From the NCBI RefSeq assembly GCF_029633865.1, contig NC_079214.1:16615936-16679935 (forward strand): DNA of 64,000 nt, given 5' to 3'. How positions within the stretch are numbered: position 1 is the stretch's first letter; every line of letters starts with the position of its first letter. This DNA is from Lampris incognitus (taxonomy: Eukaryota > Chordata > Actinopteri > Lampriformes > Lampridae). The notes beneath the pieces were generated by a model. It worked only from the letters and a program-made list of their open reading frames with translations, ran no database searches and was not told where the DNA came from. A program made the position numbers and the translations under genes. Of the stretch, positions 2,115 to 64,000 are shown piece by piece.

Positions 2115-2276
2115 CGTTATATCTAGTAGTTAGTCCGCCGCCCACTAGGAGGGGCAGTAGAAGGGAGAAGTAAGAAAATGACATGAAAAAAGCAGTGAGG
2201 AAAATAAAGAGCGCGGATGTAGGCGGTTACTGAGCAGTCGTGTCGTTTCTGCTGTCTGATATGTGGATAAATAACA
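2115..2276 (+). repeat. 5' LTR of the Gypsy element
   Basis: It is the direct repeat of 6615-6776, of equal length. It contains an AATAAA-like stretch (AAAATAAAGAG) and is followed at once by the primer-binding site at 2277. Confidence 0.85.
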
Positions 2277-2429
2277 TTGGCGACGAGGTAAAAGCAACAC
2301 TAGGAAATAACTGACCATGTCGTGAACTACGTGAGCGACGCGAAGGCAGAGTTACATCACGCGTGGGTAGGCGGCGTAGCCAGTGAGAGTGAAACCAAGT
2401 GAAGCATCGACGACAAAAAGACCCCAACG

Positions 2430-3005
2430 ATGTCGGCCTTTGGAAAAGTGGATGCATTTGATCCAACTTCGGAAAACTGGAGTAGATACGTGGACAGACT
2501 GGACTTTTATTTCGCGGCAAATGGGGTAACGGAAGAGAAGACAAAACGGGCCATTCTTCTTTGTGCGTGCGGCAGCACACTGTACGGGCTAATAATGGAT
2601 CTGGTTACGTCACTGAAACCTACTGAAGTCACGTTTGCGGTCCTAGTTAAACGTGTAGGTGAGCATTTCGATCCCAAGCCAAATGAAATTGCGGAGAGAT
2701 TTAAATTTCAGTTCTGTACAAGAGGGGCAAGTGAAGCCGTTTTATCATATGTGGTTAGATTAAAACATCAAGCCACACAATGTGGCTTCGGTAATACATT
2801 AGAGGGGCGACTGAGAGATCATTTCGTTTGGGGCATAGGCTGTGAACAGATGCAACGCCGCCTACTGGCAATCTCTGATTTGACATGGAAGTCTGCCCAT
2901 GATACAGCCATAGCACTGGAAGCAGCAGATAAAGGTGCACAAACCCTGCAGCTTGTATCCCAAGTTAATCAGGTAGAAAATCCATTGTCAGTTACACATG
3001 CATGA
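2430..3005 (+). mobile_element. gag region of the Gypsy element
   Basis: The frame starts MSAFGKVDAFDPTSENW and resembles the short gag capsid regions of fish Mag/K02A2.6-like Gypsy elements (clade assignment is inference). CCHC knuckles of the form CYRCGDPHTADNC follow just downstream. It is a fossil component of the element at 2115-6776. Confidence 0.7.
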
Positions 3006-3181
3006 CAAGGGACAACGTCAACAACATGCTACCGCTGTGGTGATCCACACACGGCTGACAACTGCAGGTTTAAAGACTTAGAGTGCCATTACTGTAAAAA
3101 ACGGGGTCATATCGCCTGTGTGTGTAGGCAGCGGACAAAGGCAAACAGACTCGGACGCTGGGCTCAAGGAAAGCTCATCTC

Positions 3182-6180
3182 ATGTCAGAGTGTTCTCCAT
3201 CGTCGGCTGTAGAGGAAGGGGAGGAACAGGCTGATTACCATTTGGCGCTGAAAGAGAGACCACATGGTCCACTAGTGATAACAGTAGAGCTGAACAACTG
3301 CCCAGTGCATTTTGAAGTGGACACGGGAGCCTTTCGTATGGTCATAGTTGAGGAATGTTTTACGAGACTACAAGCCACAATCCCAGGGTTGGAGTTGCAG
3401 CCTTCCGCAGTCATGCTGAGGTCTTTCACGGGAGAGAAGGTCGATATCCAAGGCAAAACTAAGGTGAATGTGCACTATAAGGGCCAGACATTACAGCTGA
3501 ACATGCTGGTAGTCCGCAGCCAAGGTCCGAATCTGCTGGGACGGGACTGGATGGGTGTGTTGCGGCTTGACTCGCAGACGGCGAGCTGCAACATGTTCTC
3601 TTCAAACATGACGATATCTTCAAAGATGAACTTGGGACATTAAAAGAGATGGAAGTGCGTTTCCATATTGATCAGACTGTAAACGCTCACTATTGTAAGA
3701 CCAGACCCATGCCATTTGCCATGCGATCAAAGATTGAAGCGGAGCTAGACCGACTACAAGTAAGCTACAAGCATCAAACCTGTGACACACTCAGACTGGG
3801 CTGCACCCATCGTGCCTGTACTGAAGCCAGACAATACAGTCAGAATTTGCGGCGACTACAAGCTGACTGCAAACTTAGCTTCAAGACTGGAGCAATACCC
3901 CTTGCCACAAATTGAGGAGCTTTTTGCCAAACTGGCAGGAGGCAGAAACTACTTCAAACAAGACATGTCCCATGCCTACCAACAGTTGGTGTTGACGGAA
4001 GGCTCAAGCAAGCTGGTGACGATTAACACTCACAAGGGGTTATTTCAGTACTCGCATCTCCCTTTTGGGGTTTCATCAGCCTGTGCAATTTTTCAGAGGA
4101 CAATGGAGAACTTACCTGGCCGGGATCCCACACACATAGCGGTATGTATACCTGGATGATGTGCTCATCACGGGAGTCGAAATCTGAGCCTGATCTTAAC
4201 ATGACTACAGGAAGCAGGATTCAGGCTGAAAAAGCCCAAATGTGAGTTCATGGCTCCAGCAGTTGAATATCTTGGACACAGGGTATCTGCTGCCGGTCTC
4301 CAGCCCCTGGAGAAGAAAGTAAGAGCCGCAGAGCCCAAAAATGTGACAGAGCTGTGGGCTTACTTGGGAATGATTAATTACTGTGGGCGGTTTCTTCAGG
4401 ATTTGTCATCAGTCTTAGCCCCACTTCATTACCTCCTCAAGACAGGAGTAAAATGGGTGTGGGGATCTCAACAGCATGTAGCATTCCAGAGGTCCAAGGA
4501 CCTACTGTCAGCAAAGACACTGCAGCCACATTATGACCCACAGTTGCCCCTGATCATAACATGTGACAGCTCCACGTACAGAGTTGGAGCAGTTTTGTCA
4601 CATAGGATAAAGGACAACTCTGAGAGGCCCATCTGTTTTGCGTCCTGCTCTTTGTCGCCAGCAGAAAAGAACTACTCTCAGCTGGAGAGAGAAGCGCTAG
4701 CTGTAATTTTTGCTGTGAAAAAGTTCCACCAATGTGTGTATGGCCGTAACTGCACCATCCAAACTGACCACATGCCCCTACTGGGTCTACCAGGTGAGCT
4801 AAAAAACATTCAGCCAGCTACATCACTGCACATTCAACGCTGGGCACTACCACTGGTTCAATATCAGTACATCCTCAGACACAGGCCAGGACCCTCCAGT
4901 GCAAATGCTGATGGCCTCAGCAGGCTTCCCCCCACCCCCCCCCCAGAAATGCCCAAGGACACACATAAGCCAACCGAGCTGACTTGCTTATTGAAACAGC
5001 GTAAGACACCAGTCATCAGCTGAAGCAATGGACTTGTAGGGATCCTTTGCTTGCTTAAGTGTGTCGCTTCGTTAAAGAGGGATGGCCTGCCACCTGCCCA
5101 GCTGAGGTTTTACGTCCATTCTACAGAATGCAGGCTAAGGTCTGTGTAGAAGATGGTATTCTATTCTGGGGGCTCCTTGTTGTGGTGCCACCACAAGCTT
5201 GTGAAATCCTGCTGGAGGAGCTTCATGAACCACACCCAGGAATCTCGAGAATGAAGGCTACAGCCAGAGCTCATATGTGGTGGCCTGGATTGGATAATGA
5301 AATAGAATTTAAAGTGCAAGCCTGTACCACATGTCAACAGGTTCGCAACACCCATCCCCAAGCATCAATCTCACCTTGGGAATGGCCTGGTAAACCATGG
5401 ATACGCATTCACATTGACTATGCAGGTCCATTTCTGGGGGAAATGTTCCTAATAGCAGTAGAAGCGCATTCGAAATGGCTTGAAGTTTACCCTGTCCGAA
5501 TAGCCACGTCAGCAGCAACAATTGAGCACCTAAGGGAGATGTTCAGCACTCATAGCCTTCCCCATACAGTCATGTCAGAAAACGCAGCAGTTTTTATGAG
5601 TGCTGAGTTTAAGGGATTTTTGACATCCAATGGCTTAAGACACATGACATCTGCCCCCTACAAGCCTTCCACAAATGGGTTAGTTGAAAGAGCTGTCCAA
5701 ACAGTTAAGAGGGCCCTGAAGAAAACTGTGGGATCAGGAGGATCACTAAAGATGCACATATCAAGGTTCTTGGCGGCATACAGATCAACACCACATGCAA
5801 CAACAGGGAGGTCACCAGCAGAGATGTTATTCAGCCGTCCTGTCAGAACCAGGTTTGACCTGCTAAGACCGGATGTCCATTCTAAAGTATTCCAGAACCA
5901 AGAGTGAACGATCTGTAGAAAAAACAGCACCAGGCCTACCAGAACACTGGCATCAGGTGCAGAAGTGTGGGTAAGGGATTTCACGAGCCATAAGAAATGG
6001 CTACCCGGGGTGGTGATCACCAGCACAGGTCCTCTCTCCTACAGAGTGGAGGTGGAAGACCAGGTGTTTAGACGTCATGTGGACCACCTATTATTAAGAA
6101 GAGAGTCAGACAGACGCCACCTACTCAGGGAAGACCAGCAGCAAAACCCCGAGACCAACTGGGACACTGATGGCTATTGA
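3182..6180 (+). mobile_element. pol region of the Gypsy element
   Basis: The order is protease, reverse transcriptase, RNase H, integrase, the diagnostic Ty3/Gypsy order. Recognisable pieces include HFEVDTGAF (protease), LPFGVSSA (RT), CDSSTYRVGAVLSH (RNase H), HPGISRMKATARAHMWWPG (integrase zinc-binding region) and YKPSTNGLVERAVQTVK (integrase core). It is a broken fossil. Confidence 0.75.
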
Positions 6181-6614
6181 GCTGAGCAGTCAACTCAGCC
6201 TCCGTATACAGAGCCTGGGAATCAGGTACAACAACCACAAGCTGTCGGGGTGGGGTGGGGGTGGGGGGGTTGTGGCGGAAGTGAAGCTGAGCAGCTGCCT
6301 CAGCCGCCCGATACTGAGCCCATTTTAGGGAGGAGGAAATAAGGTACGAGGGCCCTTGCCGTTCCTGTAGGTCAAGGAAACCCCCTGAAAAACTTGATGT
6401 GTAGTTAGAGTGGCCAGAACTTGTTGGGGCACAATAATCCCTGTTCTGAGTCCACCAGCACTGGGGCAGTCTACCCTCACTCTGAGTTAGCTGCTTTTAT
6501 ATTGTTCTTTCAGTGAATATGATGTTATTTGGTTAGACCCATATTTACTCATCTGTGAGTGTTCGTGGGAGTTTATTTCAAAGTAATGGTTATGCTCAAC
6601 GAGGGGTGGAGGGA

Positions 6615-6776
6615 TGTTATATTTAGTAGTTAGTCCACCGCCCACTAGGGGGGGCAGTAGAAGGGAGAAGTAAGAAAATTACAGGTAAAAAAGCAGTGAG
6701 GAAAATAAAGAGAGCTGAGGTAGGCGGTTACTGAGCAGTCGTGTCATTTCTGCTGTTTGATATGTGGATAAATAAC
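6615..6776 (+). repeat. 3' LTR of the Gypsy element
   Basis: It starts TGTTATATTTAG and ends ATAAATAACA. It is the direct repeat of 2115-2276. The 430 bp before it (6181-6614) carry no recognised domain but include a G-rich run at about 6245-6270. Confidence 0.85.
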
Positions 6777-8085
6777 AACAACTACTACTACTACTACTAC
6801 TACTTTCGGCTGCTCCTGTTAGGGGTCACTACAGCGGATCACCCGTTTCCATTTCTTCCTGTCCTCTGCATCTTCTTCTGTCACACCAGCCACCTGCATG
6901 TCCTCCCTCACCACATCCATAAACCTCGTCTTTGGCCTTCCTCTCTACAGCTTCCCTGGCAGCTCCATATTAAGCGTCCTTCTACCAATATACACAGCAT
7001 CTCTCCTCCACACATTTCCAAGCCATGTCAATCTTGCTTCTCTTGCTTTGTCTCCAAACCATCCAAATTGAGCTGTCCCTCAAATACAATCGTTCCTAAT
7101 CCTGTCCTTCTCCGTCACTCCCAATGAAAATCTTAACATCTTGAACTCTGCCACCTCCAGCTCCGCCTCCTGTCTTTTCGTCAGTACCACTGTCTCCAAA
7201 CCATGTGATATAGCTGGTCTCACTACCATCTTGTAAACCTCCCCTTTAACTCTTGCTGTCAACTTTCTGTTGCAAATCACTCCTGACACTCTTTTCCACC
7301 CACTCCACCCTGCCTGCACTCTCTTCTTCACCTCTCTTCTGCACTCCCCATTACTTTGGACAGTTGACCCCAAGTATTTAAACTCATATGCCTTTGTCAC
7401 CTCTAGTCACCATTCCACTGTCCTCCCTCTCATTCATGCATAGGTATTCCGTCTTGCTCCTACTGACTTTCATTCCTCTTCTCTCCAGTGCATACCTCCA
7501 CCTCTCCAGGCTCTCCTTAACCTGCACCCTACTCTCGCTATAGATCACAATGTCATCCGCAAACATCATAGTGCACGGAGACTCCTGCCTGATCTCGTCC
7601 ATCAACCTGTCCATCACCACTGCAAACAAGAAAGGGCTCAGAGCTGATCCTTGATGTAATCCCACCTCCACCTTGAACTCATCTGTCATTCCAACCACAC
7701 ACCTCACCACTGTCACACTGCCCTCATACATATCCTGCACCACTCCTACATACTTCTCTGCAACTCCCGACTTCCTCATACAATACCACACCTCCTCTCT
7801 CGGCAGCCTGTCATATGCTTTCTCTAAATCCACAAAGACACAATGCAACTCTTTCTGGCCCTCTCTATACTTCTCCATCAAAATTCTCAAAGCAAACATC
7901 ACATATGTAGTGCTCTTTCATGGCATGAAGCCAAACATGCTGCTCGCTAATCGTCACCTCTCGTCTTAACCTAGCTGCTATTACTCTTTCCCATAGCTTC
8001 ATGATGTGGCTGATCAACTTTATACCTCTGTAGTTGCTACAGTTCTGCACATCGCCCTTATTCTTGAAAATCAGTACCAGTATGC

Positions 8086-19386: not shown

Positions 19387-19538
19387 TGTAGCGAATTCGG
19401 GGGGCAACCACAGGAACTGCCGCGGCCGGGAAGCGAACCCGTACCGCCCGCACCGCAGGAGACATCGCTAACCGCTCGACTAAAGGGTCAGACCCGCCTA
19501 CCAGCGGCCAGCGTGTCTTCTTATCCATGCACGTTACA
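19387..19538 (-). mobile_element. Solo short LTR (152 bp) with tRNA-like insert
   Basis: On - it runs from TGTAACGTGCATGGATAAG to CCCCGAATTCGCTACA, the same length (152 bp) as the LTR at 49,787-49,938. Inside lie a Pol III A-box match TAGTCGAGCGG and a B-box-like GGTTCGCTTCC about 40 bp apart. ATAT flanks both sides (19,383-19,386 and 19,539-19,542), a 4-bp target duplication. It is a fossil solo LTR of the family described at 49.2-49.9 kb. Confidence 0.7.
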
Positions 19539-45018: not shown

Positions 45019-48000
45019 TTAGGATCCTGGGAAAACCGAGCTGATGTCTAACTTCTGCACAGCCATGGCCTTCCTCAGTGTCCCCCAGAAGTCACTGGTG
45101 GCTTTTGTTGATCTGTCCGAGGGCCAGTTCAGGGAAGGAAGGGCCCTCAGGGTCCTCTGGACCAGTAGAGGTAAAGGTGGGTTGAGCTGACCCAGGGATG
45201 CTGGTTTTCCCGTCGTCCAGATCAGCAGGACTTTGAGGTGGGAGTCTTGTAGCAGCACCTATGGGATGGGATACCAGTAACTCAGAATTTAAATTAATCC
45301 GCTATACGTCTTCATGCATGCTCAATAATCCAGGTGAGGAAGTCACAGGAAGTGGAATCAGTTCATCTGGACACGATGTTTATCGAGAGAAACGTGTCAC
45401 CACTCATCTAAGTGACCTCTTCGGTCTCAAATGACTGCAGGTGTCCCCACCCTTATAAACAGCACAGTGGCATAACGACCGAAACCAACGACCGGTTTCA
45501 TATGCAAATTCCCGTGACCATTAACTAGAGTTACAACGGCCATGTGTGCTATTCACAGAGGATTGGGGAATGGTTGCAATCACAGTATTGTAAGATGGTG
45601 ACAGATGGCGACCAAACAGACGCTGGCCAAGAGGATGGCACGACACAGAAGAGCTGACACGTCAGGCCATGACTCCACAGTCTACACCCACCTACAGGCC
45701 AGTTGCCACTCTTTCAAGGATGGAGATGTGCACATGCTTGATAGGGAGGAGTGCTGGTTTGAACAGGGAGTCAAAGAGGCCATCTATCTGAAGAGGGAAC
45801 GACCATCCCTGAATTGATGGGGGGCCTAAAAGTACATGTCACCATTTTACAATGCTGTGATCGCAACTATTCCCCAGTCCTCTGTGAATAGTACACATGG
45901 CCATTATAACTGTAGTTAACGGTCATGGCAATTTGCATATGAAGCTGATTGTTGGTTTCAGTCATCACGCCACTGTATTGCAGCGAATTCGGGGGGCAGT
46001 CCGGGAAAGCAGCCAATGTGTCTACTTATCCATGCACGTTACAGTATTGTCTATAAAGGTGGGGACACTGTATCGTTTATAAGGGTGGCGATACCTGCAG
46101 TCAGTTTAGACTGCGGAGGTCACTTAGATGATTGCTGAAACGTTCCTCTCAATAAACGTTGTGTCCAGACGAGCTGATTCAACCTTCTGTAATCTACAAT
46201 GACATATTGCTATTGCTCACTGGAGGCAAATGTTTCAACAAAGATACTTCAGTTATTTGTAACATAGCCTAACCATTAACAGTTTATATTTTTTTAAAAA
46301 GCTTGTTTTCAATCAAAAACACACAGACAAATCCAATCACAAAGTTGCCCCAACCCTCTGGTCTGACATTAGTTCACTGTTAGGTTTTCATCGGGAAACG
46401 ACTTCCTTTGAACAGGTTGTATGGGGAATGAGATGCACAGCCCACCTGGATTCCTGATTCCAGCACAAACACAGCATCGCTGTTGCAGAGGTAGTCAACA
46501 GACAGCAGGCAGATCAGCATTCTGCTCCTCTTTAACACGTGCACCACGTCATCTGTGTATGCTGCAACCAAAGAGAAGCCTATCAGCGGCCTGACTAGTC
46601 AAGGAGAGTCAGATGATAGCCCCCCCCCCCAATTTCTCCATCTCTGACCTCCACCCGGTAGAAGGTCTCTCTCTTGCAGACAGAGGCGGTAGCCCCAACG
46701 GTCTTCCAATACTCGAGGCAGTAACACCTCCGGTTGCCTCTGGGTGGCAGAGCCCTCCTCAACTGCTGGGTCTGACAGAGATGCTGTCGGATACAGAGTC
46801 ACAAAAGATTCATTTTATTAGTCTGTCGTTATCTTGCTGAAGGGGCAGTGTGCATACAGACAAACAGAGAAACACTGCTTTTATCAAGGAGGCCTACCTG
46901 TTTCATCTGCACCAGGCCCTGACGGTGAAAACCCAGTGGAGCCTTCTACACACTCCTCGGAGGGAGGGCTCCACACGTACGACAAAAATGCATCAAACTC
47001 CTTCTCTGCTCAGTGGAGTGGCCACGAAATGGAGGAAACAAAACCTTTTTAGGTAACTCATTCATAATTGGCTTATTTTGGTGTATTACAGGGTCTTGTA
47101 AAAACGGAGACTAATAATGCTGAAATGGCTCGCTCGAGGTCCCCCTCACAAGTAATTTGCTCACCAGTGTGTAAAATCGTAATGTCAATATGAATTTCTT
47201 CATACATTCAGAATGTTAAAACGTCCATACAATACAGGTATGTACAAGGGTGCACACACCAAAATAAGGCCACAGTAAAGTAAATTTGATGATTTTTGCT
47301 TTTTTTTTTTTTAACTCTTGTTAAAGTCTGTCAAATACAAAAGTGGTTGCCACCTAACTAATGTACTCCCACGGACCTTTCTTAAGAGGAAAATACAGCC
47401 GATTTAATGCCGAAGAGTCGTTTAGAGACTAGACCACATCCTGACAAGGTTTGGTGAGGATGCCCCAGCTTCACTGCCTTTCTGCAAGGCATGTTTACCC
47501 CTATAGCAATATATAGACTTATCATAAGAATATGGTGGGCAGAAAATACAGAGACACGAGTAGTGTGGGTGTTCTGTGGGACCTCTCATGGCGTGGACTA
47601 TACATCAATTATCAGCTCTAAAAAAGAGAAGCCACAACATTTCTGTACACTATCAAGCTGTACCTTAGTCCCCACATGGATACGAGCAACATTTTCATGA
47701 ATTTTTGTCATTTACCAAATTTTTATTATAAATAAACAACAAAAAAACCCTTTCCTTTCCATCCTGTAGCATATGGTTGATAGTGTAAGACGAGGCGTGA
47801 CATTTCTAGCTAACTAATTCCTGTGCAGTGTGCACACACGTTTGTGCACCTTGGTATAATATATGTATGTGTTTGTCTAATTTTTCATGCAAACAAGTGT
47901 ATTTACGTCTGTGTGTGTGTGTGTGTGTGTGTTTGCACAAGCGTATGTATATAGAGGTCATTTTTGTGCATGTGTGTGTATGTGTTTTTGTGAAATTCTC

Positions 48001-51000
48001 ACCTTCATCGTGGTTTGCTTTTGGCCAGTGTGATTTGTAGTATACGAATATTTCCAGCCATTTCATATGCACGGTTATTCCCATCCCAGTGACCAGGACC
48101 ACAAGTGCAATGGGATACAAAAATATTGCAAGCTGCTTTACTGAAACACATTTTGGCAAAAAAAAAAAAAAAGGGTTGTCAAATGTGGCCTGAACCATAA
48201 TAAGTCTAAATTATACTAGATTTAGAAAGGCTTCGAGGTCTCTGGCAATATATATTAAAGTATGTGTCATTATAAAGCAGTGTGAAACTAAATCATAAAC
48301 TTTTTAAATTGCTAAGTATTGCATTTTGGTGGATCATTTTCCCCAATTTTGCCATGCATACCTCAGTATGAGTCAATCAACTGTTATTTATCCATCACAC
48401 TGGCAACCCCTGTATCTATAGCTATGGCTGGCAGTCCCCCCCCCCCTTCACTTAGCTATTTTGAGGCTATAGTGTATTCTTACAATCACAAAAATAAAAA
48501 CTTGCAGGTAAAGCTATGGTCCTGACAGTATGAATGATTTTAGGATGACCGTCATAGTGTAGGTTTTGCATCATTGTTAATAGTTCAGACTTTATCCTGC
48601 AAAAAAAAGAAAAGAAGATCTACACCCCTTTTTTTTGCATTACAGTAAGGTTTTTTAAGACATTTTTATGATTCTAAGACAAAGTGAAGACCAAAAGTGA
48701 TGATAAAAAAAAATCCATTATCCTTGATGCAAGCATTGCTGGTTTTCTGGGGTTTTCTTTTTTTGGGTGGTTGAACTCACAGTAGCAGGCTAAACAGTAA
48801 GAATGTGTCGAGGAAGTACTAGTAGCTCCTCAGGTGGACAGTTGGAATAAATATACAGAAGTGACATGAGTAATAAAAGTACCTGTGGTTTTCCTCTGGA
48901 GCTTGATGGAGGCACTTCTGTTCCCCAGAGAGTTACTGGCAACACAGGTGTAGGTGCGCTGCAGGTGCTGTAACGACACCTCTTGTATCACGGCTGTGTG
49001 TGTTATCCGGAACTCGGTGGGGAAGTCTAGTAGTTTTTGTCTTGAGGAGAAACAGAAGTTGAGCTACCTCGCTTTCCAGCTGAAACACGTTGCGCTTGCC
49101 ATGCCAAATAACTAACGACTTGTAGCTTAGAAAGCCCCCGCCGGAAAACACGAGCAGAGGTGTAGTAAAGGATAGCACCTGCGTGCCCAAAACACGGCAG
49201 TAGCAGAGATGGGAGGATGTAATCCTGTAGGGAAAACAGTGGGGGGGCAGCCGGGACACGAACCCGGGTCGCCCGCGCCACGGGTGACTGCGCTAACCAG
49301 TTAACTAAAGGTGGTGCGGGTGACTCGGGTTCGCGTCCCGGCTGCGGCGGTTCCCCGGCTGCCCCCCTGTACTCACTACATTATTGTCAGAAGTGGGATG
49401 GTGAGAAAGAGAGGGGGTAGTATAACAAGCATGAATGCGTAGACTCGCTAGCCGGTTGGTTAACGAACGGGTCGGACCCTTTAGTCGACTGGCTAGGGCG
49501 ACCCGGGTTCTTGTCCCGGCTGTGGCGGTTCCCGCGGTTGCCCCCCCCCCGTCTGTAACGTGCATGGATAATTAGACACGTTGCCCCTTGGCTAACGGGT
49601 CGGACCCTTTTGTCAACTGGTTAACGTAGTCGCTTGCGGTGTGGGAGCCACGGGTTCGCGTCCCGGATGCGGCGTCCCGAGCTGCGGCGTCCCGAGCTGC
49701 GGCGTCCCGAGCTGCCCCCTGAATTCGCTACATTGGTGTCAGAAGTGGTATACGCGCGGACGAGCTTTCCCGAAGGAGGTGGGTAGTGTAATGTGCATGG
49801 ATAAGTAAACACGTTGGCCCTTGGCTAACGGGTCGGACCCTTTAGTCGAACGGTTAGTGATGTCTCCCATGGTGCGGGAGATACGGGTTCGCGTCCCGGC
49901 TGTGGCAGTTCCTGTGGTTGCCCCCCGAATTCGCTACAATACTAATAACCTGATGTGTGCCAACAAAAATGACACAGTTACTTAGCTCCTGTTGTAAAAG
50001 AAGCATTTGGCATGGACAAATACATTCATCTATAGCAGAAGTGTTGCATTTCGCTACACCTTCGCCTGCTCCCCCTGCACTTACTTTTGACTCTCGGCCT
50101 GCATCAGAACCATGTCTTCATTTTGGGCACTGCTGCTGTACCACTGGACCAGAGCAGAGGAGGTCCTCTCGAAACGGAAATTGACTTCACAGGTCAGATT
50201 GTGAGGCTGACCTAGAATCAGCATGGGAAACCTCGTTAACCACTCGTCACGCTCCATAGTCCACACAGGAGCGGTCACATCACCCTACTCGTTTAGGGTG
50301 TTCGTCACCCTGTTGTTCGGTCCTGTGCGCTCAGTAAGAACATTTAATTTAACCTTTAGATAACCACATTGGCTGCTCTTACCTATCTCTACTTCCTCGG
50401 TCTCATTTCCACAGGGACGGACAATAATCGGAAAGGCCTTAGAATCACTTGCTGTTAGGGTGAGAGAAATACAATCGTTTTATGATGCCACAGCATAACA
50501 GCCGAACATGGTTGGTGGAATTGGCTCACTATAGTCCTGAGGTAGTTGAGACCTCCACCACTCAGAGGATTTCGAAAGCGTTGAGACCAGTACTTACCCC
50601 CCCCCCCCTCCCCAGTTGTATCTGGTCAATTGCCCCACTCTTCTGAGCCATTCTGGTCGCTGCTCGACTCCCCTCTGCCGACCCTGGGAGGGCTGCAGAC
50701 TACCACATGCCTCCTCCAATACATGTGGAGTCACCAGCTGTTTCTTTTCACCTGACAGCGAGGAGTTTCACCAGGGGGACATAGCGCGTGGGAGGATCAC
50801 GCCATTCCCCCCGGTTCCCGCCCCGACCAACCAGAGGTGGCACAAGTGCAGCGACCAGGACACATACACCCACATCCGACTTCCCATCCGCAGACACGGC
50901 CAAATGTGTCTGTGGGGACCGCCCGACCAAGCCGGAGGTAACACGGGGATTCGAACCGGCGATCCTCGTGTTGGTAGGCAACAGAATAGACCGCTACGCT

Positions 51001-53458: not shown

Positions 53459-55071
53459 TCCTCCTCCTATTATCTCAGAGCTATAAGCATCACTTATAGA
53501 GCTTGTCTACCATCCAGCAGATAATGAAGAAGAAAAAAAAATCAGTCCTCTGTACTTTCCTTCATATCAACCAAGGCCGCTGGACTTCTGCTTGGCTCAG
53601 GCCCATATCAGCTCCTCATCACTGAATCCGGATTTGACTTGTGGTATCAAAATATCGACAGTATCGAGCACCGTCAAACTCACGGGTTTCCTGTTTGGTT
53701 AAGCTGCACATTTCATTGATGGTTTTTCCCAGAAACCTACCCTGACAGCGTGTTTTTGCTGGGCTGCTGTAGGAAGGTGTGAACCATTTCCTGTGCTGCA
53801 GAGAGGCCAGGTCTCACTTGCACTATCCTGCTTAGTTCTTTTTACCAGGGGGGTGCCAGAAACTGAATTGGTTCATTTTTTGATAAAGAAAAATGACAAT
53901 ACTGATCTACATGCACCTATAAATTGCATCACAGAGATGCATGATATCATTCTATCACACATTCTGTAATTATATAAAGATGAAGTGAAAACAGGTTTAA
54001 GAGTCATCAGTAATTGTCAAGAAAGCACCATAGCAGATAATTTGATGTCAACATATAAAAGGGGCAGATGGGCAACTTTTTCAGCTGCTGCAAAAACATA
54101 AAACCCACCAGTATTGGTAGGACCCCACTTATTTCAACTGCAACTTCTTCAGCTGCTGCAAAAACATAAAACCCACCAGCATTGGTAGGACCCCACTTAT
54201 TTCAACTGCATCAGTTCCTGTTGACCTAGTAAACCCAACCACAATATTCTTACCTATTTCTTCTCGTCTCACTTTCAAATTAATGAAAAAAAAAGATTTG
54301 CAAGAACTGAAACAACTCGAGATGATGTCATTTATGTAGGGGGTTTTGCTGTCTGTTTTCACCAGCTTTGGGACGGCTTTTTCTTTTGTCCACCCTGAAA
54401 AACCGTGAATATTTCACCAAATCAGACAACCCTCAAAGATGAAATATGCTCTGATCTCTTATCGTATGACAAGTTTTATTGACAGAGGAAGTACAAACAT
54501 CGATGCATTACTGAAAAGAGGGGACATCTGCTCATAAAGGAAAGGGACTAGTGAAGTCAGAGTAAACAGCTGTTCTAGTTGACATCTGTCTTGTTAGTGC
54601 TAAAGACATTTTTTTTTCACAGTATCAAGATAGGGTAGAGCAATTGACAACAACAAATATGACTTCCAAGGCCTAAAATGTGTTGACTCAGCTATGGCAA
54701 AAACAAAAACAAAAAACCACAATTTCATATGTATAACCAAACTGCAAAGCCTCAAGGTAGGCCAGTGGGCACAGCTGGAAAATGTTGGTGTTTTGATTTC
54801 TGTCATGCCTACTGCATATTTAAGGCAAAAAAAATTCAAAATTTTCTCAGAAACTGTCGTAAAGTACTCAAGTAGGGTGGTTTAATTACTGATTATCATT
54901 ATCATGTAACACATGACATCAAACTATCGATGTTCGCGCCCACCGTATCGGTGAGTGCCGAGGTTACGTGATTTTTTTTCCATGTCACTTTTGCTTATTA
55001 AGTCAAACACTACAAATACAGGCAGTCCATGAAATGTGTATTGTTGACCAAAATACGCCTCACCAGATGAG
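53459..55071. other. il18rap upstream / intergenic stretch
   Basis: It separates il18rap from its upstream neighbour by 1.6 kb. A 68-bp unit is tandemly duplicated at 54,072-54,139 and 54,140-54,207 (CTGCAAAAACATAAAACCCA). No promoter element could be assigned. A TATAAA-like ATATAAAAGG lies at 54,053-54,062 but on +. Confidence 0.4.
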
Positions 55072-58534: not shown

Positions 58535-60345
58535 TCCACCATGGTGAGAAGGTGAGTGAACCCATGGGAGGGGGGCAGGGGGCGCACCAGGTCCACAATC
58601 ACATGGTCGAAACGCCTCTCGGACACCAGGGATGGCGCCAAGGGGGCTTTGGTATGACGGTGTACCTTGGAACGCTGGCATGCCACGTAGGAGTCAGCCC
58701 AGGACGTCCTTCCTGAGGCCGGGCCAGACAAACTTGGCCCCCATCAGCTTAGTGGATGTCTTCACACCTGGGTGGGAAAGGCCATAGATAACATCAAAAA
58801 CACGGCACCGCCAGCCTGTGGGCACCATGGGGCGGGACTGGCCCATGGAAACGTTGCAAAGGAGCGTGGTGTTGGCACTGTCAAACACCACATCCACCAA
58901 CCGCAGCCCCATAGCGGCCGTCCGATAGGCCTGGATGTCCGCGTCAGTGGCTTGGTCTGCAGCCATGGCAGTGTAATCGAGTCCAAAGTGAAGGGACCCT
59001 GCCACCGCCCGGGAGAGGCAGTCAGCGACCAAGTTGTCCTTGCCAGCCACGTACCGGATGTCTGTGGTAAACTCCGAGATGGCAGAGAGCTGATGCTGTT
59101 GGCACCTGGACCACGGCTCGGAGGTCTTGGCCATGGCAAATGTCAGTGGCTTGTGGCTGATGAAGCCGGTGCAACGTTGGCCTTCCAACAGGAACCTGAA
59201 GTGTCGGGTGGCAAGGAAGAGACCCAGGAGCTCCCGGTCAAAAGTGCTGTACTTCCTCTCATTGTCTTTAAGCTGTTTGCTAAAGAAGGCAAGGGGCTGC
59301 CAGGTAGGGCAGGGCCCTGACTGCATAGTCAGAGGGGTCAGTTGTGAGGGCAATCAGGGCGGTGGGGGACGAGTGCGCCAGCAAAGCGGCGTTGGCCAGC
59401 GCAGCCTTGGAGTCGTCGAAAGCTTCGTCCATCGCCAGGGACCAGTCTACCTTGCCCTTGGCTTCCTTGCCTCGCAGGGCCTCGTACAAGGGCCGCATGC
59501 GGTGAGCTGCGCAGGGAATGAATCTATTATAAAAGTTCACCAGGCCAAGAAACTCCTGATGGGACTTCACAGTGCGGGGGCGTAGGAAACTGGCATCGGC
59601 GTCCAGTCTGGTGGGAAGCGGAACGGCTCCCTGCGGGGAGACATGGTGGCCGAGGAAGTCGATGGACGACAGGCCGAACTGGCACTTGGCTGGGTCGACT
59701 ATGAGTCCATGTGCACTGAGCCGCTCGAACAACTGCCAGAGGTGCGTCAGGGGCACCCCCGCGGACGCGCTGGCCACGAGAATGTCGTCCAAGTAAACAA
59801 ACAAGAACGGCATATCCTGTAGCACAGCCGCTGGAACGTCTGCGCTGCCCCCTTGAGGCTGAAGGGCATCCGCAGGAACTTGAAGTCCAAAACGGTGTGA
59901 TGACCACTGTCTTGGTCACGTCCCAAGGGTGGACCGGTACCTGGTGGTAGCCCCGCACCAAATCCATTTTGGAAAAGATGGTGGCCCCCGACAGGTGGGC
60001 GGAGAAGTCCTGTATGTGCGGTACAGGGTTGTGGCGTTGTTCAGGCGACGAAAATCGCTGCAGGGACGCCAACCGTCATCAGCCTTAGAAACCATGTGCA
60101 GGGGGGAGGCCCACGGGCTGTCCGAGTGGCGCACGATACCGAGGCGTTCCATGGTGGCAAACTCCTCCCTGGTGATCGTGAGCTTAGCAGAGTCGAGGCG
60201 CCGAGCACGTGCATAGACCGGGGGGCTGTCAATAGCAATATTGTGCTCCATGCCATGCTTGGCCACCGCTGATGAGAACGTAGGTGTGGTGAGGTCAGGG
60301 AACTCTACGAGCAGGCATTGATACGTGAGCATGTTTGACAGGCTG
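58535..60345 (-). mobile_element. Ty3/Gypsy retrotransposon, partial pol (fossil)
   Basis: On -, RT (FLFVYLDDILVAS near 59,795), RNase H (YSTFDRELLGLFLATRHFR near 59,225) and the start of integrase (LSHPGVKTSTKLMGAKFVW near 58,765; DHVIVDLVRPLPPSHGF near 58,600) follow each other in family order. gag, LTRs and the end of integrase are not visible. It is broken, with several interruptions, and belongs to a different lineage from the element at 2.1-6.8 kb. Confidence 0.8.
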
Positions 60346-63797: not shown

Positions 63798-64000
63798 TGT
63801 AGTGAATTCAGGGGGCAGCCGGGCCGGACCGTCACAGCCGGGATGCGAACTCGGATTTCCCGCACCGCGGGCGACAACGTTAACCAGTCGACTAAAGGGT
63901 CCGACCCCTTAGCCAAGGGCTAAGCGAGCCTATTTATCCGTGATCGTTACATTGCCTCCTTCCTTCGGGATTCGGGTCCCCGTGCATCGCCACAGCCAGG
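63798..64000 (-). mobile_element. Short tRNA-bearing LTR and start of its internal region, cut by window end
   Basis: The LTR at 63,798-63,951 (154 bp) runs on - from TGTAACGATCACGGATAAA to CCCCTGAATTCACTACA. A box TAGTCGACTGG and B-box-like GTTCGCATCCC lie inside. Upstream on - (63,952-64,000) is CCCGAAGGAAGGAGGCAA, the same purine-tract style that precedes the LTRs at 49.4 and 49.8 kb, so this is a 3' LTR whose element continues past the window. Fossil. Confidence 0.6.

What the first reader, a model, noticed from the sequence alone, without database searches (positions are those of the whole stretch)
49226..49938. Miniature LTR retroelement family whose LTR contains a tRNA-like Pol III promoter
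Seen: four-plus LTR units of about 130-180 bp, each TG(TA)...(C)TACA, with an A box that fits the consensus, a B box with one mismatch, tRNA-like spacing and an anticodon-arm-like stem between. Known: plant Cassandra TRIMs carry 5S rRNA promoters in their LTRs, and ordinary TRIMs have only PBS and PPT between LTRs. I know of no described fish counterpart carrying a tRNA-like unit in the LTR. Inference: a Pol III-transcribed TRIM, or a SINE captured by an LTR.
Basis: partly seen in the sequence, partly recalled or inferred. Interest (0 to 1): 0.78.

Follow-up and report, generated by a model that had tools for sequence, protein, structure and literature searches.

The report
Tiny retrotransposon with tRNA-like promoter
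This is a very short, gene-less retrotransposon whose end repeats carry the two control boxes of a tRNA gene; thousands of copies sit in this genome, and it fits a kind of element called Helenus that was described in 2024, so it is a good example of something known, not a new kind of thing.

Summary
The 152-bp unit at 49787-49938 is the LTR of a miniature LTR retrotransposon (TRIM). Genome copies keep fixed ends (TGTAA...CTACA) and stand as LTR pairs around, most often, 53-117 bp. Right after the 5' LTR comes a PBS whose 18-nt form is fully complementary to the 3' end of this genome's own tRNA-Leu; a purine tract precedes the 3' LTR; insertions carry 4-bp target duplications (14 of 28 exact, 6.4 expected). 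The exact LTR-end+PBS 25-mer occurs 2658 times. A and B boxes lie 43 bp apart and are better conserved than the rest of the LTR interior. No copy tested is called a tRNA, and no stem clearly covaries: a promoter relic, not a working tRNA. A sister family (B) shares the promoter core.

The structural reading holds, and a SINE is ruled out. The claim that no fish counterpart is described does not hold: Kojima 2024 (PMC10886601) named this kind "Helenus" (TRIMp3), with zebrafish, sturgeon and coelacanth families, 4-bp TSDs in animals and tRNA-Leu among the vertebrate primers. Pol III transcription is untested here. The host could not be named, so whether this is a catalogued family is open.

The parts
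49236..49311 (-). inverted LTR fragment (LTR positions about 53-116 and beyond), head-to-head with the next piece
   Evidence: blastn (49248-49311 matches LTR 53-116), inverted repeats I2, I3, I8
49312..49380 (+). right half of an LTR (LTR positions 84-152), ends CTACA
49382..49399 (+). primer binding site, 2 mismatches to TGGTGTCAGAAGTGGGAT
49402..49417 (+). polypurine tract
   Evidence: read by eye
49421..49553 (+). degenerate LTR (starts TATAAC, lacks TACA end); 49466-49546 matches LTR 41-140
49554..49732 (+). LTR, full length with internal 15-bp tandem expansion (49658-49715)
49734..49751 (+). primer binding site for tRNA-Leu, 1 mismatch to the 18-mer complementary to the genome's own tRNA-Leu 3' end plus CCA
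49772..49783 (+). polypurine tract GAAGGAGGTGGG directly before the 3' LTR (then TAG)
   Evidence: like tracts before LTRs elsewhere
49787..49938 (+). LTR, 152 bp, TGTAA...CTACA
49830..49843 (+). GGGTCGGACCC inverted repeat plus TTT just before and touching the A box (LTR 44-57); role unproven
49843..49854 (+). A box TAGTCGAACGGT
49886..49896 (+). B box GGTTCGCGTCC
19387..19538 (-). solo LTR of the same family, 4-bp TSD ATAT/ATAT
63798..63951 (-). LTR of the same family with a purine tract on its upstream side (3' LTR of an element running towards the window edge)
46012..46043 (-). fragment of an LTR (positions 1-32)

Best explanation
It is a Helenus-type TRIM (TRIMp3): a non-coding, parasitic LTR retrotransposon, typically 357-421 bp long (152-bp LTR, 53-117 bp inside, 152-bp LTR). 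Shown: LTR pairs, PBS for tRNA-Leu, PPT, 4-bp TSDs, thousands of copies, conserved A and B boxes. Inferred: RNA polymerase III starts just upstream of the A box of the 5' LTR and reads through to the 3' LTR. A Gypsy-type element's enzymes then copy the RNA, primed by tRNA-Leu at the PBS and by the PPT, and integrate it, often at ATAT-like sites. Many copies have since collapsed to solo LTRs or grown into LTR-internal-LTR arrays. The window locus is an old, rearranged compound of such copies.
For: Fixed ends: 44 of 47 listed genome matches cover the 152-mer from base 5 or less to base 150 or more (40 of 4802 first-look candidates scored). LTR pairs: of 61 near-full-length copies 36 abut an internal region (21 PPT only, 11 PBS only, 4 both), 25 neither; gaps of 53-55 or 116-117 bp recur. 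Junctions: 40 of 42 listed matches run from LTR end through PBS and PPT into the next LTR (40 of 724 candidates scored). The exact LTR-end+PBS 25-mer occurs 2658 times, reversed control 0. PBS: 18 of 18 complementary to the 3' end of this genome's tRNA-Leu plus CCA (39 exact sites of the 22-mer; L063 is tRNA-Leu-CAG by ARAGORN and 52.5 bits to RF00005). TSD: 14 of 28 exact against 6.4 in shuffles, p 5e-5. Promoter: A/B boxes with 43-bp offset in 43 of 61 copies; box columns 0.965 against 0.919 conserved, 1 of 124 circular shifts as good. Sister family B with the same core: one fetched element is a whole LTR pair with its own PBS and 4-bp TSD ATAA (L065). Published class with the same features: PMC10886601.
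Against: No transcript data at all. No copy tested is called a tRNA and box matches are imperfect: the summed A+B mismatch is 1-2 in 35 of 61 copies and 3-4 in 26. The 61 copies were mostly picked by similarity to the window copy, so the conservation test is biased in sample. No autonomous partner was proven: two flanks show gag-like ORFs after a Leu-like PBS (1 mismatch in L029, 4 in L015), but the Pfam matches are below cut-off, and the Gypsy in the window has another PBS. 14 of 28 TSDs are not exact, and because of the ATAT preference exact pairs arise often by chance. Within the window alone the 13-base PBS core is not striking: 6 matches with up to 2 mismatches, 2.4 expected, 4 of 100 shuffles reach 6.
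Confidence: 0.93

Rival explanations
1. A tRNA-derived SINE family, dispersed by a LINE, that merely looks like an LTR.
For: The unit carries A and B boxes with tRNA spacing, and many copies stand alone (25 of 61 without PBS or PPT next to them).
Against: Fixed TGTAA...CTACA ends, LTR pairs with PBS and PPT, 4-bp TSDs and LTR-internal-LTR arrays; from general knowledge none of this is made by a LINE.
Confidence: 0.02
2. A TRIM transcribed by Pol II like ordinary TRIMs; the tRNA-like stretch is a fossil SINE insertion without function.
For: B box imperfect in the family A and B units scored; no tRNA structure is maintained; no expression data.
Against: Box columns are better conserved than the rest of the LTR interior, and the promoter core is what two otherwise dissimilar LTR families share. 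AATAAA/ATTAAA in 0 of 61 LTRs and TATAAA/TATATA in 0 (weak, since chance alone often gives this in 152 bp).
Confidence: 0.15
3. A tandem duplication cluster of tRNA pseudogenes or a local satellite, no mobile element.
For: The window locus is locally repetitive and inverted.
Against: Copies lie on many contigs with TSDs.
Confidence: 0.01

Closest known systems
Helenus (Kojima 2024, PMC10886601), vertebrate families such as LTR-11_DR of zebrafish and LTR1_LCh/LTR2_LCh of coelacanth
   Same: TRIM with tRNA-like A/B boxes in the LTR, PBS and PPT the only internal features, 4-bp TSD in animals, tRNA-Leu among vertebrate primers, thousands of copies and tandem arrays (LTR-11_DR), no functional tRNA
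   Different: Host not named here, so identity to a Repbase family could not be checked; two co-existing families share the promoter core but have different PBSs; copy number may be larger than the 5575 LTRs reported for LTR-11_DR, though counting methods differ and my range is 4,700-66,000
Cassandra (plant TRIM with 5S promoter in LTR)
   Same: TRIM with a Pol III type promoter in the LTR; tandem LTR-internal arrays (PMC7215508, passages)
   Different: 5S rRNA type promoter, plants; no 5S match here
Ajax (nemertean TRIM with 5S fragment, PMC10886601)
   Same: TRIMp3 design, tRNA-Leu primer
   Different: 5S promoter, 5-bp TSD
tRNA-derived SINEs (SINE2)
   Same: A and B boxes, probably the source of the promoter (Kojima's proposal)
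   Different: No LTR, PBS or PPT; integrated by LINE machinery

Membership tests
Helenus / TRIMp3 | Short (<1 kb in the paper's screen) element with two LTRs | tested here: met
   LTR 152 bp, internal most often 53-117 bp, pairs in several loci; for family B
Helenus / TRIMp3 | tRNA-like sequence with A and B boxes in the LTR | tested here: met
   6 of 3000 shuffles as good for the window copy; 43-bp offset in 43 of 61 copies. Imperfect boxes
Helenus / TRIMp3 | PBS complementary to a host tRNA just after the 5' LTR | tested here: met
   18 of 18 to own tRNA-Leu; 2658 exact LTR-end+PBS sites. For family B the tRNA was not fetched (22-mer 7 sites)
Helenus / TRIMp3 | PPT just before the 3' LTR | tested here: met
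   25 of 61 copies have the purine tract upstream (rule-based count)
Helenus / TRIMp3 | 4-bp TSD (animal Helenus) | tested here: met
   14 of 28 exact, shuffled mean 6.4, p 5e-5; 12 of 40 rows dropped because a flank ran into PBS, PPT or another LTR piece
[quoted passage not shown]
   no tRNA called, no clear covariation, T-arm outer pair non-standard in 57 of 60 copies with both letters (56 A-G, 1 A-C). The paper finds a few exceptions in bivalves and fungi
Helenus / TRIMp3 | Mobilised by Gypsy elements with the same PBS (animals) | tested here: inconclusive
   gag-like ORFs after Leu-like PBS in L029 (1 mismatch) and L015 (4 mismatches), Pfam below cut-off; window Gypsy has another PBS
Helenus / TRIMp3 | Sequence match to a catalogued Helenus family (Repbase) | not testable with these tools
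   Repbase is not held and the session allows no look-ups in supplementary files
Helenus / TRIMp3 | Transcription by RNA polymerase III (expected, unproven in the paper) | not testable with these tools
   no expression data
Cassandra / Ajax | 5S rRNA-derived promoter in the LTR | tested here: not met
   no Rfam family at gathering score in the window; no 5S hit up to E 10 in 49200-50000
tRNA SINE | No LTRs, 3' tail of a LINE, longer TSDs of variable length (recalled) | tested here: not met
   LTR pairs, fixed ends, 4-bp TSDs; a LINE tail was not searched for

The most novel reading that the evidence does not exclude
The inverted repeat GGGTC-N-GACCC followed by TTT at the edge of the A box, found in both LTR families, is the Pol III stop signal of the 3' LTR. 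Pol III would start inside it in the 5' LTR, so the hairpin forms only in the 3' LTR; start and stop then overlap by about 15-18 nt and give the R region that strand transfer needs. This would explain how a Pol III promoter can work inside an LTR, which I did not find discussed for Helenus in the parts of the paper I saw.
Probability: 0.15. Interest if true: 0.55.

Novelty: new member of a known kind. Interest (0 to 1): 0.27.

Why it matters
As a find it adds an abundant case, with two sister families that have different primer sites, to a class described in 2024 from consensus sequences. Its use is as a test bed: with thousands of copies, whether Helenus is really transcribed by Pol III, and how its RNA gets identical ends, can be asked directly with small-RNA or run-on reads. 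Annotation may also mistake such LTRs for SINEs or tRNA pseudogenes (inference).

Tried and rejected
Rejected: SINE (fixed ends, PBS, PPT, LTR pairs); functional tRNA (no call by ARAGORN, which ran with the bacterial code, or by Rfam; no clear covariation in anticodon arm, T arm or upstream stems); microRNA hairpin (the Rfam MIR6201 match of 39.3 bits at 49250-49342 is below its cut-off of 69 and comes from the inverted LTR fragment); 5S promoter.

RNA hairpin test: for the pair LTR 45-53, whole-genome counts are 6520 intact, 521 with the 5' arm changed, 138 with the 3' arm changed and 20 with both: odds ratio 1.8, Fisher p 0.014. There is no control pair, and copy age alone can give this. The arms change unequally (7.5% against 2.2%), which speaks against pairing as the thing under constraint. 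Shuffles fold the two 17-mers as well in 63 of 200 and 22 of 200 cases; a 37-mer around the family A site beats most shuffles (9 of 200 as good) but by other pairs than this hairpin. Family B pieces do fold with the hairpin. T3 is shorter than the T4 shown to work with a hairpin in PMC9278858 (passages seen).

Whether families A and B differ by promoter swapping was not settled: their internals are alike as wholes (0 of 2000 shuffles as good), but the middle parts alone are not (648 of 2000), nor are the LTR right parts (341 of 2000) or starts (104 of 2000).

Full report
WHAT WAS CLAIMED AND WHAT IS THERE. The sequence and repeat analysis show a compound locus: an inverted LTR fragment (49236-49311, -), the right half of an LTR (49312-49380), a degenerate PBS and PPT, a degenerate LTR (49421-49553), then a complete LTR (49554-49732), PBS, PPT and a complete LTR (49787-49938). 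The last two LTRs and the 54 bp between them are a recognisable element. The two LTRs are 85.3% identical over 150 aligned bases (31 gap columns), so the element is old or was rebuilt by exchange. The window also holds a solo LTR (19387-19538, -) with TSD ATAT/ATAT and a 3' LTR at 63798-63951 (-).

IT IS A REPEAT FAMILY WITH FIXED ENDS. In the window's own genome (1.48 Gb, 537 contigs) the 152-mer had 4802 first-look candidates, of which the tool scores 40. These gave 47 matches, 44 of them running from base 5 or less to base 150 or more. In 20 random 10-kb stretches (3668 N) there were 9 hits in 5 stretches. Six are family A (3 stretches), 3 of them at least 90% of the LTR length, which scales to about 23,000 near-full LTRs with a 95% range of 4,700-66,000. 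The other 3 hits are full units of a second family, B, found through a shared core.

IT IS AN LTR RETROTRANSPOSON. Of 61 near-full-length copies of family A (from loci L002-L060 and the window), 21 have the purine tract just upstream, 11 have the PBS just downstream, 4 have both (middle of arrays) and 25 neither. Internal regions of 53-55 bp and 116-117 bp recur, with other sizes too; chains of three LTRs (L039) and of six LTR pieces (L033) occur. A search with the junction listed 42 matches, 40 of which run through LTR end, PBS, PPT and next LTR start (40 of 724 candidates scored). The exact 25-mer LTR-end+PBS occurs 2658 times and its reversed control 0 times. Of 684 exact LTR 3' ends of one subtype, 189 run on exactly into TTGGTG. 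Target duplications: 14 of 28 usable copies have an exact 4-bp repeat, against 6.4 in shuffles, p 5e-5; 8 of the 14 are ATAT, and 12 of the 40 rows were dropped because a flank ran into PBS, PPT or another LTR piece. LTRs of one chain are 80-93% identical, so these copies are not recent.

THE PRIMER. The PBS TGGTGTCAGAAGTGGGAT is the exact complement of a tRNA 3' end plus CCA. The 22-mer of that tRNA end occurs 39 times in the genome. Four of the 39 were fetched: ARAGORN calls one, L063, a tRNA-Leu (CAG); three of four pass the Rfam tRNA model; L063's last 15 bases give the PBS letter for letter.

THE tRNA-LIKE PART. In the window copy the A box has one mismatch and the B box one, 43 bp apart; 6 of 3000 dinucleotide shuffles do as well. 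The B unit of L044 has 3 mismatches (31 of 3000), and a third LTR form in L016 has 2 with a perfect B box (1 of 3000) (consensuses recalled). Over the 61 family A copies the summed mismatch is 1-2 in 35 and 3-4 in 26. ARAGORN finds no tRNA in the window or in 44 loci; Rfam finds no tRNA in the window, in 20 loci or in the family B stretches. No stem clearly covaries: for the 20 pairs tested (two upstream stems, anticodon arm, T arm) the paired counts lie within 3 of 61 copies of what independent columns give, and the T-arm outer pair is A-G in 56 of 61. The box columns are better conserved than other interior columns (0.965, 25 columns, against 0.919, 65 columns, CpG columns left out; 1 of 124 circular shifts as good). 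Most of these copies came from a similarity search with the window copy, so this is support, not proof. AATAAA or ATTAAA occur in 0 of 61 LTR copies and TTTT in 2 of 61, as Pol III use would want, but chance would often give the same. The reading is a promoter kept for transcription, not a tRNA.

A SISTER FAMILY. The promoter core CGGGTCNGACCCTTTAGYCGANYGGTTAG occurs 6520 times (reversed control 0). Among the first 100 sites listed, 18 neighbouring pairs lie on the same strand 221-282 bp apart and none on opposite strands within 400 bp. Two were fetched. L065 is a complete element: 135-bp LTRs, T plus TGGTGGCAGCGGTGGGAT as PBS, a purine tract and TSD ATAA/ATAA. L066 is alike, with a 3-base insertion in the PBS and a broken right end. 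Of the three full B units in the random stretches two have exact 4-bp flanking repeats (TAAA, CTAC; L044), one (L060) has not (read by eye). The tRNA 22-mer that would pair with this PBS occurs 7 times; that it is another tRNA-Leu is recalled and was not checked on a fetched gene. LTRs A and B resemble each other mainly in the core; the internals are alike as wholes but not in their middle parts alone.

MECHANISM. Best reading: Pol III starts shortly before the A box of the 5' LTR, and enzymes from a Gypsy element copy and insert the RNA. Shown: PBS, PPT, TSD, LTR pairs and conserved boxes. Inferred: Pol III use and the partner. Two flanks carry gag-like ORFs after a Leu-like PBS (L029, 1 mismatch; L015, 4 mismatches), but the Pfam scores are below cut-off, and the Gypsy in the window (LTRs about 2115-2276 and 6615-6777) has the PBS TTGGCGACGAGG. 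How a Pol III transcript gets matching ends is open. The GGGTC-N-GACCC-TTT before the A box (T-run of three in 56 of 61 family A copies; TTT in 5 of 5 family B units looked at) could be the stop signal in the 3' LTR, as hairpins help Pol III stop at weak T4 tracts (PMC9278858, passages seen). But the run is T3, the hairpin is no better than many shuffles, the pair counts are inconclusive (odds ratio 1.8, no control) and the two arms change unequally (7.5% and 2.2%). I give it 0.15.

WHAT IS KNOWN. Kojima 2024 (PMC10886601; outline, main text parts 1-4 of 6, tables and legends; terms looked up) defines Helenus as TRIMs with a tRNA-like sequence in the LTR. They occur in fungi, plants and animals; animal Helenus has 4-bp TSDs; vertebrate families use tRNA-His, -Leu or -Lys; zebrafish LTR-11_DR has 5575 LTRs, 2618 internals and tandem arrays; functional tRNA is unlikely and Pol III use is unproven. 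A 2026 meeting report mentions them in one sentence (PMC12859917, passages). Searches for TRIMp3, 'Helenus retrotransposon' and LTR-11_DR and for Helenus with LTR retrotransposon gave no further paper on them. The rows listed by three wider searches (20, 20 and 10 rows, titles and abstract starts seen) showed no other tRNA-carrying TRIM. The features that could be tested fit, the Gypsy partner excepted (inconclusive); a sequence match to a catalogued family could not be tested.

VERDICT. Real, well built and ordinary within a class published in 2024. Nearby exon-like frames resemble Ig domains; one is weakly closest to IL-18 receptor accessory protein (E 0.0032), another to Ig domains of titin and others. 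That fits a vertebrate, but 'fish' was not verified.

Noticed in passing
window 2115-6777 (+): A Gypsy element with LTRs of about 162 bp (92-95% alike over the two matched blocks), PBS TTGGCGACGAGG, and protease, RNase H and integrase pieces in separate open frames; a different primer from the TRIM.
   Followed up: partly
window 59283-59915 (-): Remains of another reverse transcriptase with RNase H (Pfam RVT_1, RT_RNaseH_2).
   Followed up: no
window 49658-49715: 15-bp unit GCGTCCCGAGCTGCG repeated 3.9 times inside one LTR, on the B-box side.
   Followed up: no
window 49247-49345: Head-to-head LTR fragments make a foldback with 35-nt arms (89% complementary) that Rfam partly matches to a microRNA family below cut-off; a likely false microRNA call.
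   Followed up: yes
window 48830-50284 (-): Ig-domain-like exon frames, one weakly like IL-18 receptor accessory protein; the TRIM cluster lies between two of them, probably in an intron, on the opposite strand.
   Followed up: partly
L016 1547-1649: A third LTR form with a perfect B box (GGTTCGAATCC) and a PBS close to that of family B, without the GGGTC...GACCC part.
   Followed up: partly
genome-wide core sites: The 5' arm of GGGTC-N-GACCC is changed about 3.4 times as often as the 3' arm (G to A against C to T at the paired position); unexplained by pairing.
   Followed up: partly
L029 1-804 (-), L015 1-625 (-): Gag-like ORFs a short way after a tRNA-Leu-like PBS (1 and 4 mismatches): candidate autonomous Gypsy partners, Pfam below cut-off.
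   Followed up: partly
window 54072-54207: A 68-bp tandem duplication, 97% identical.
   Followed up: no
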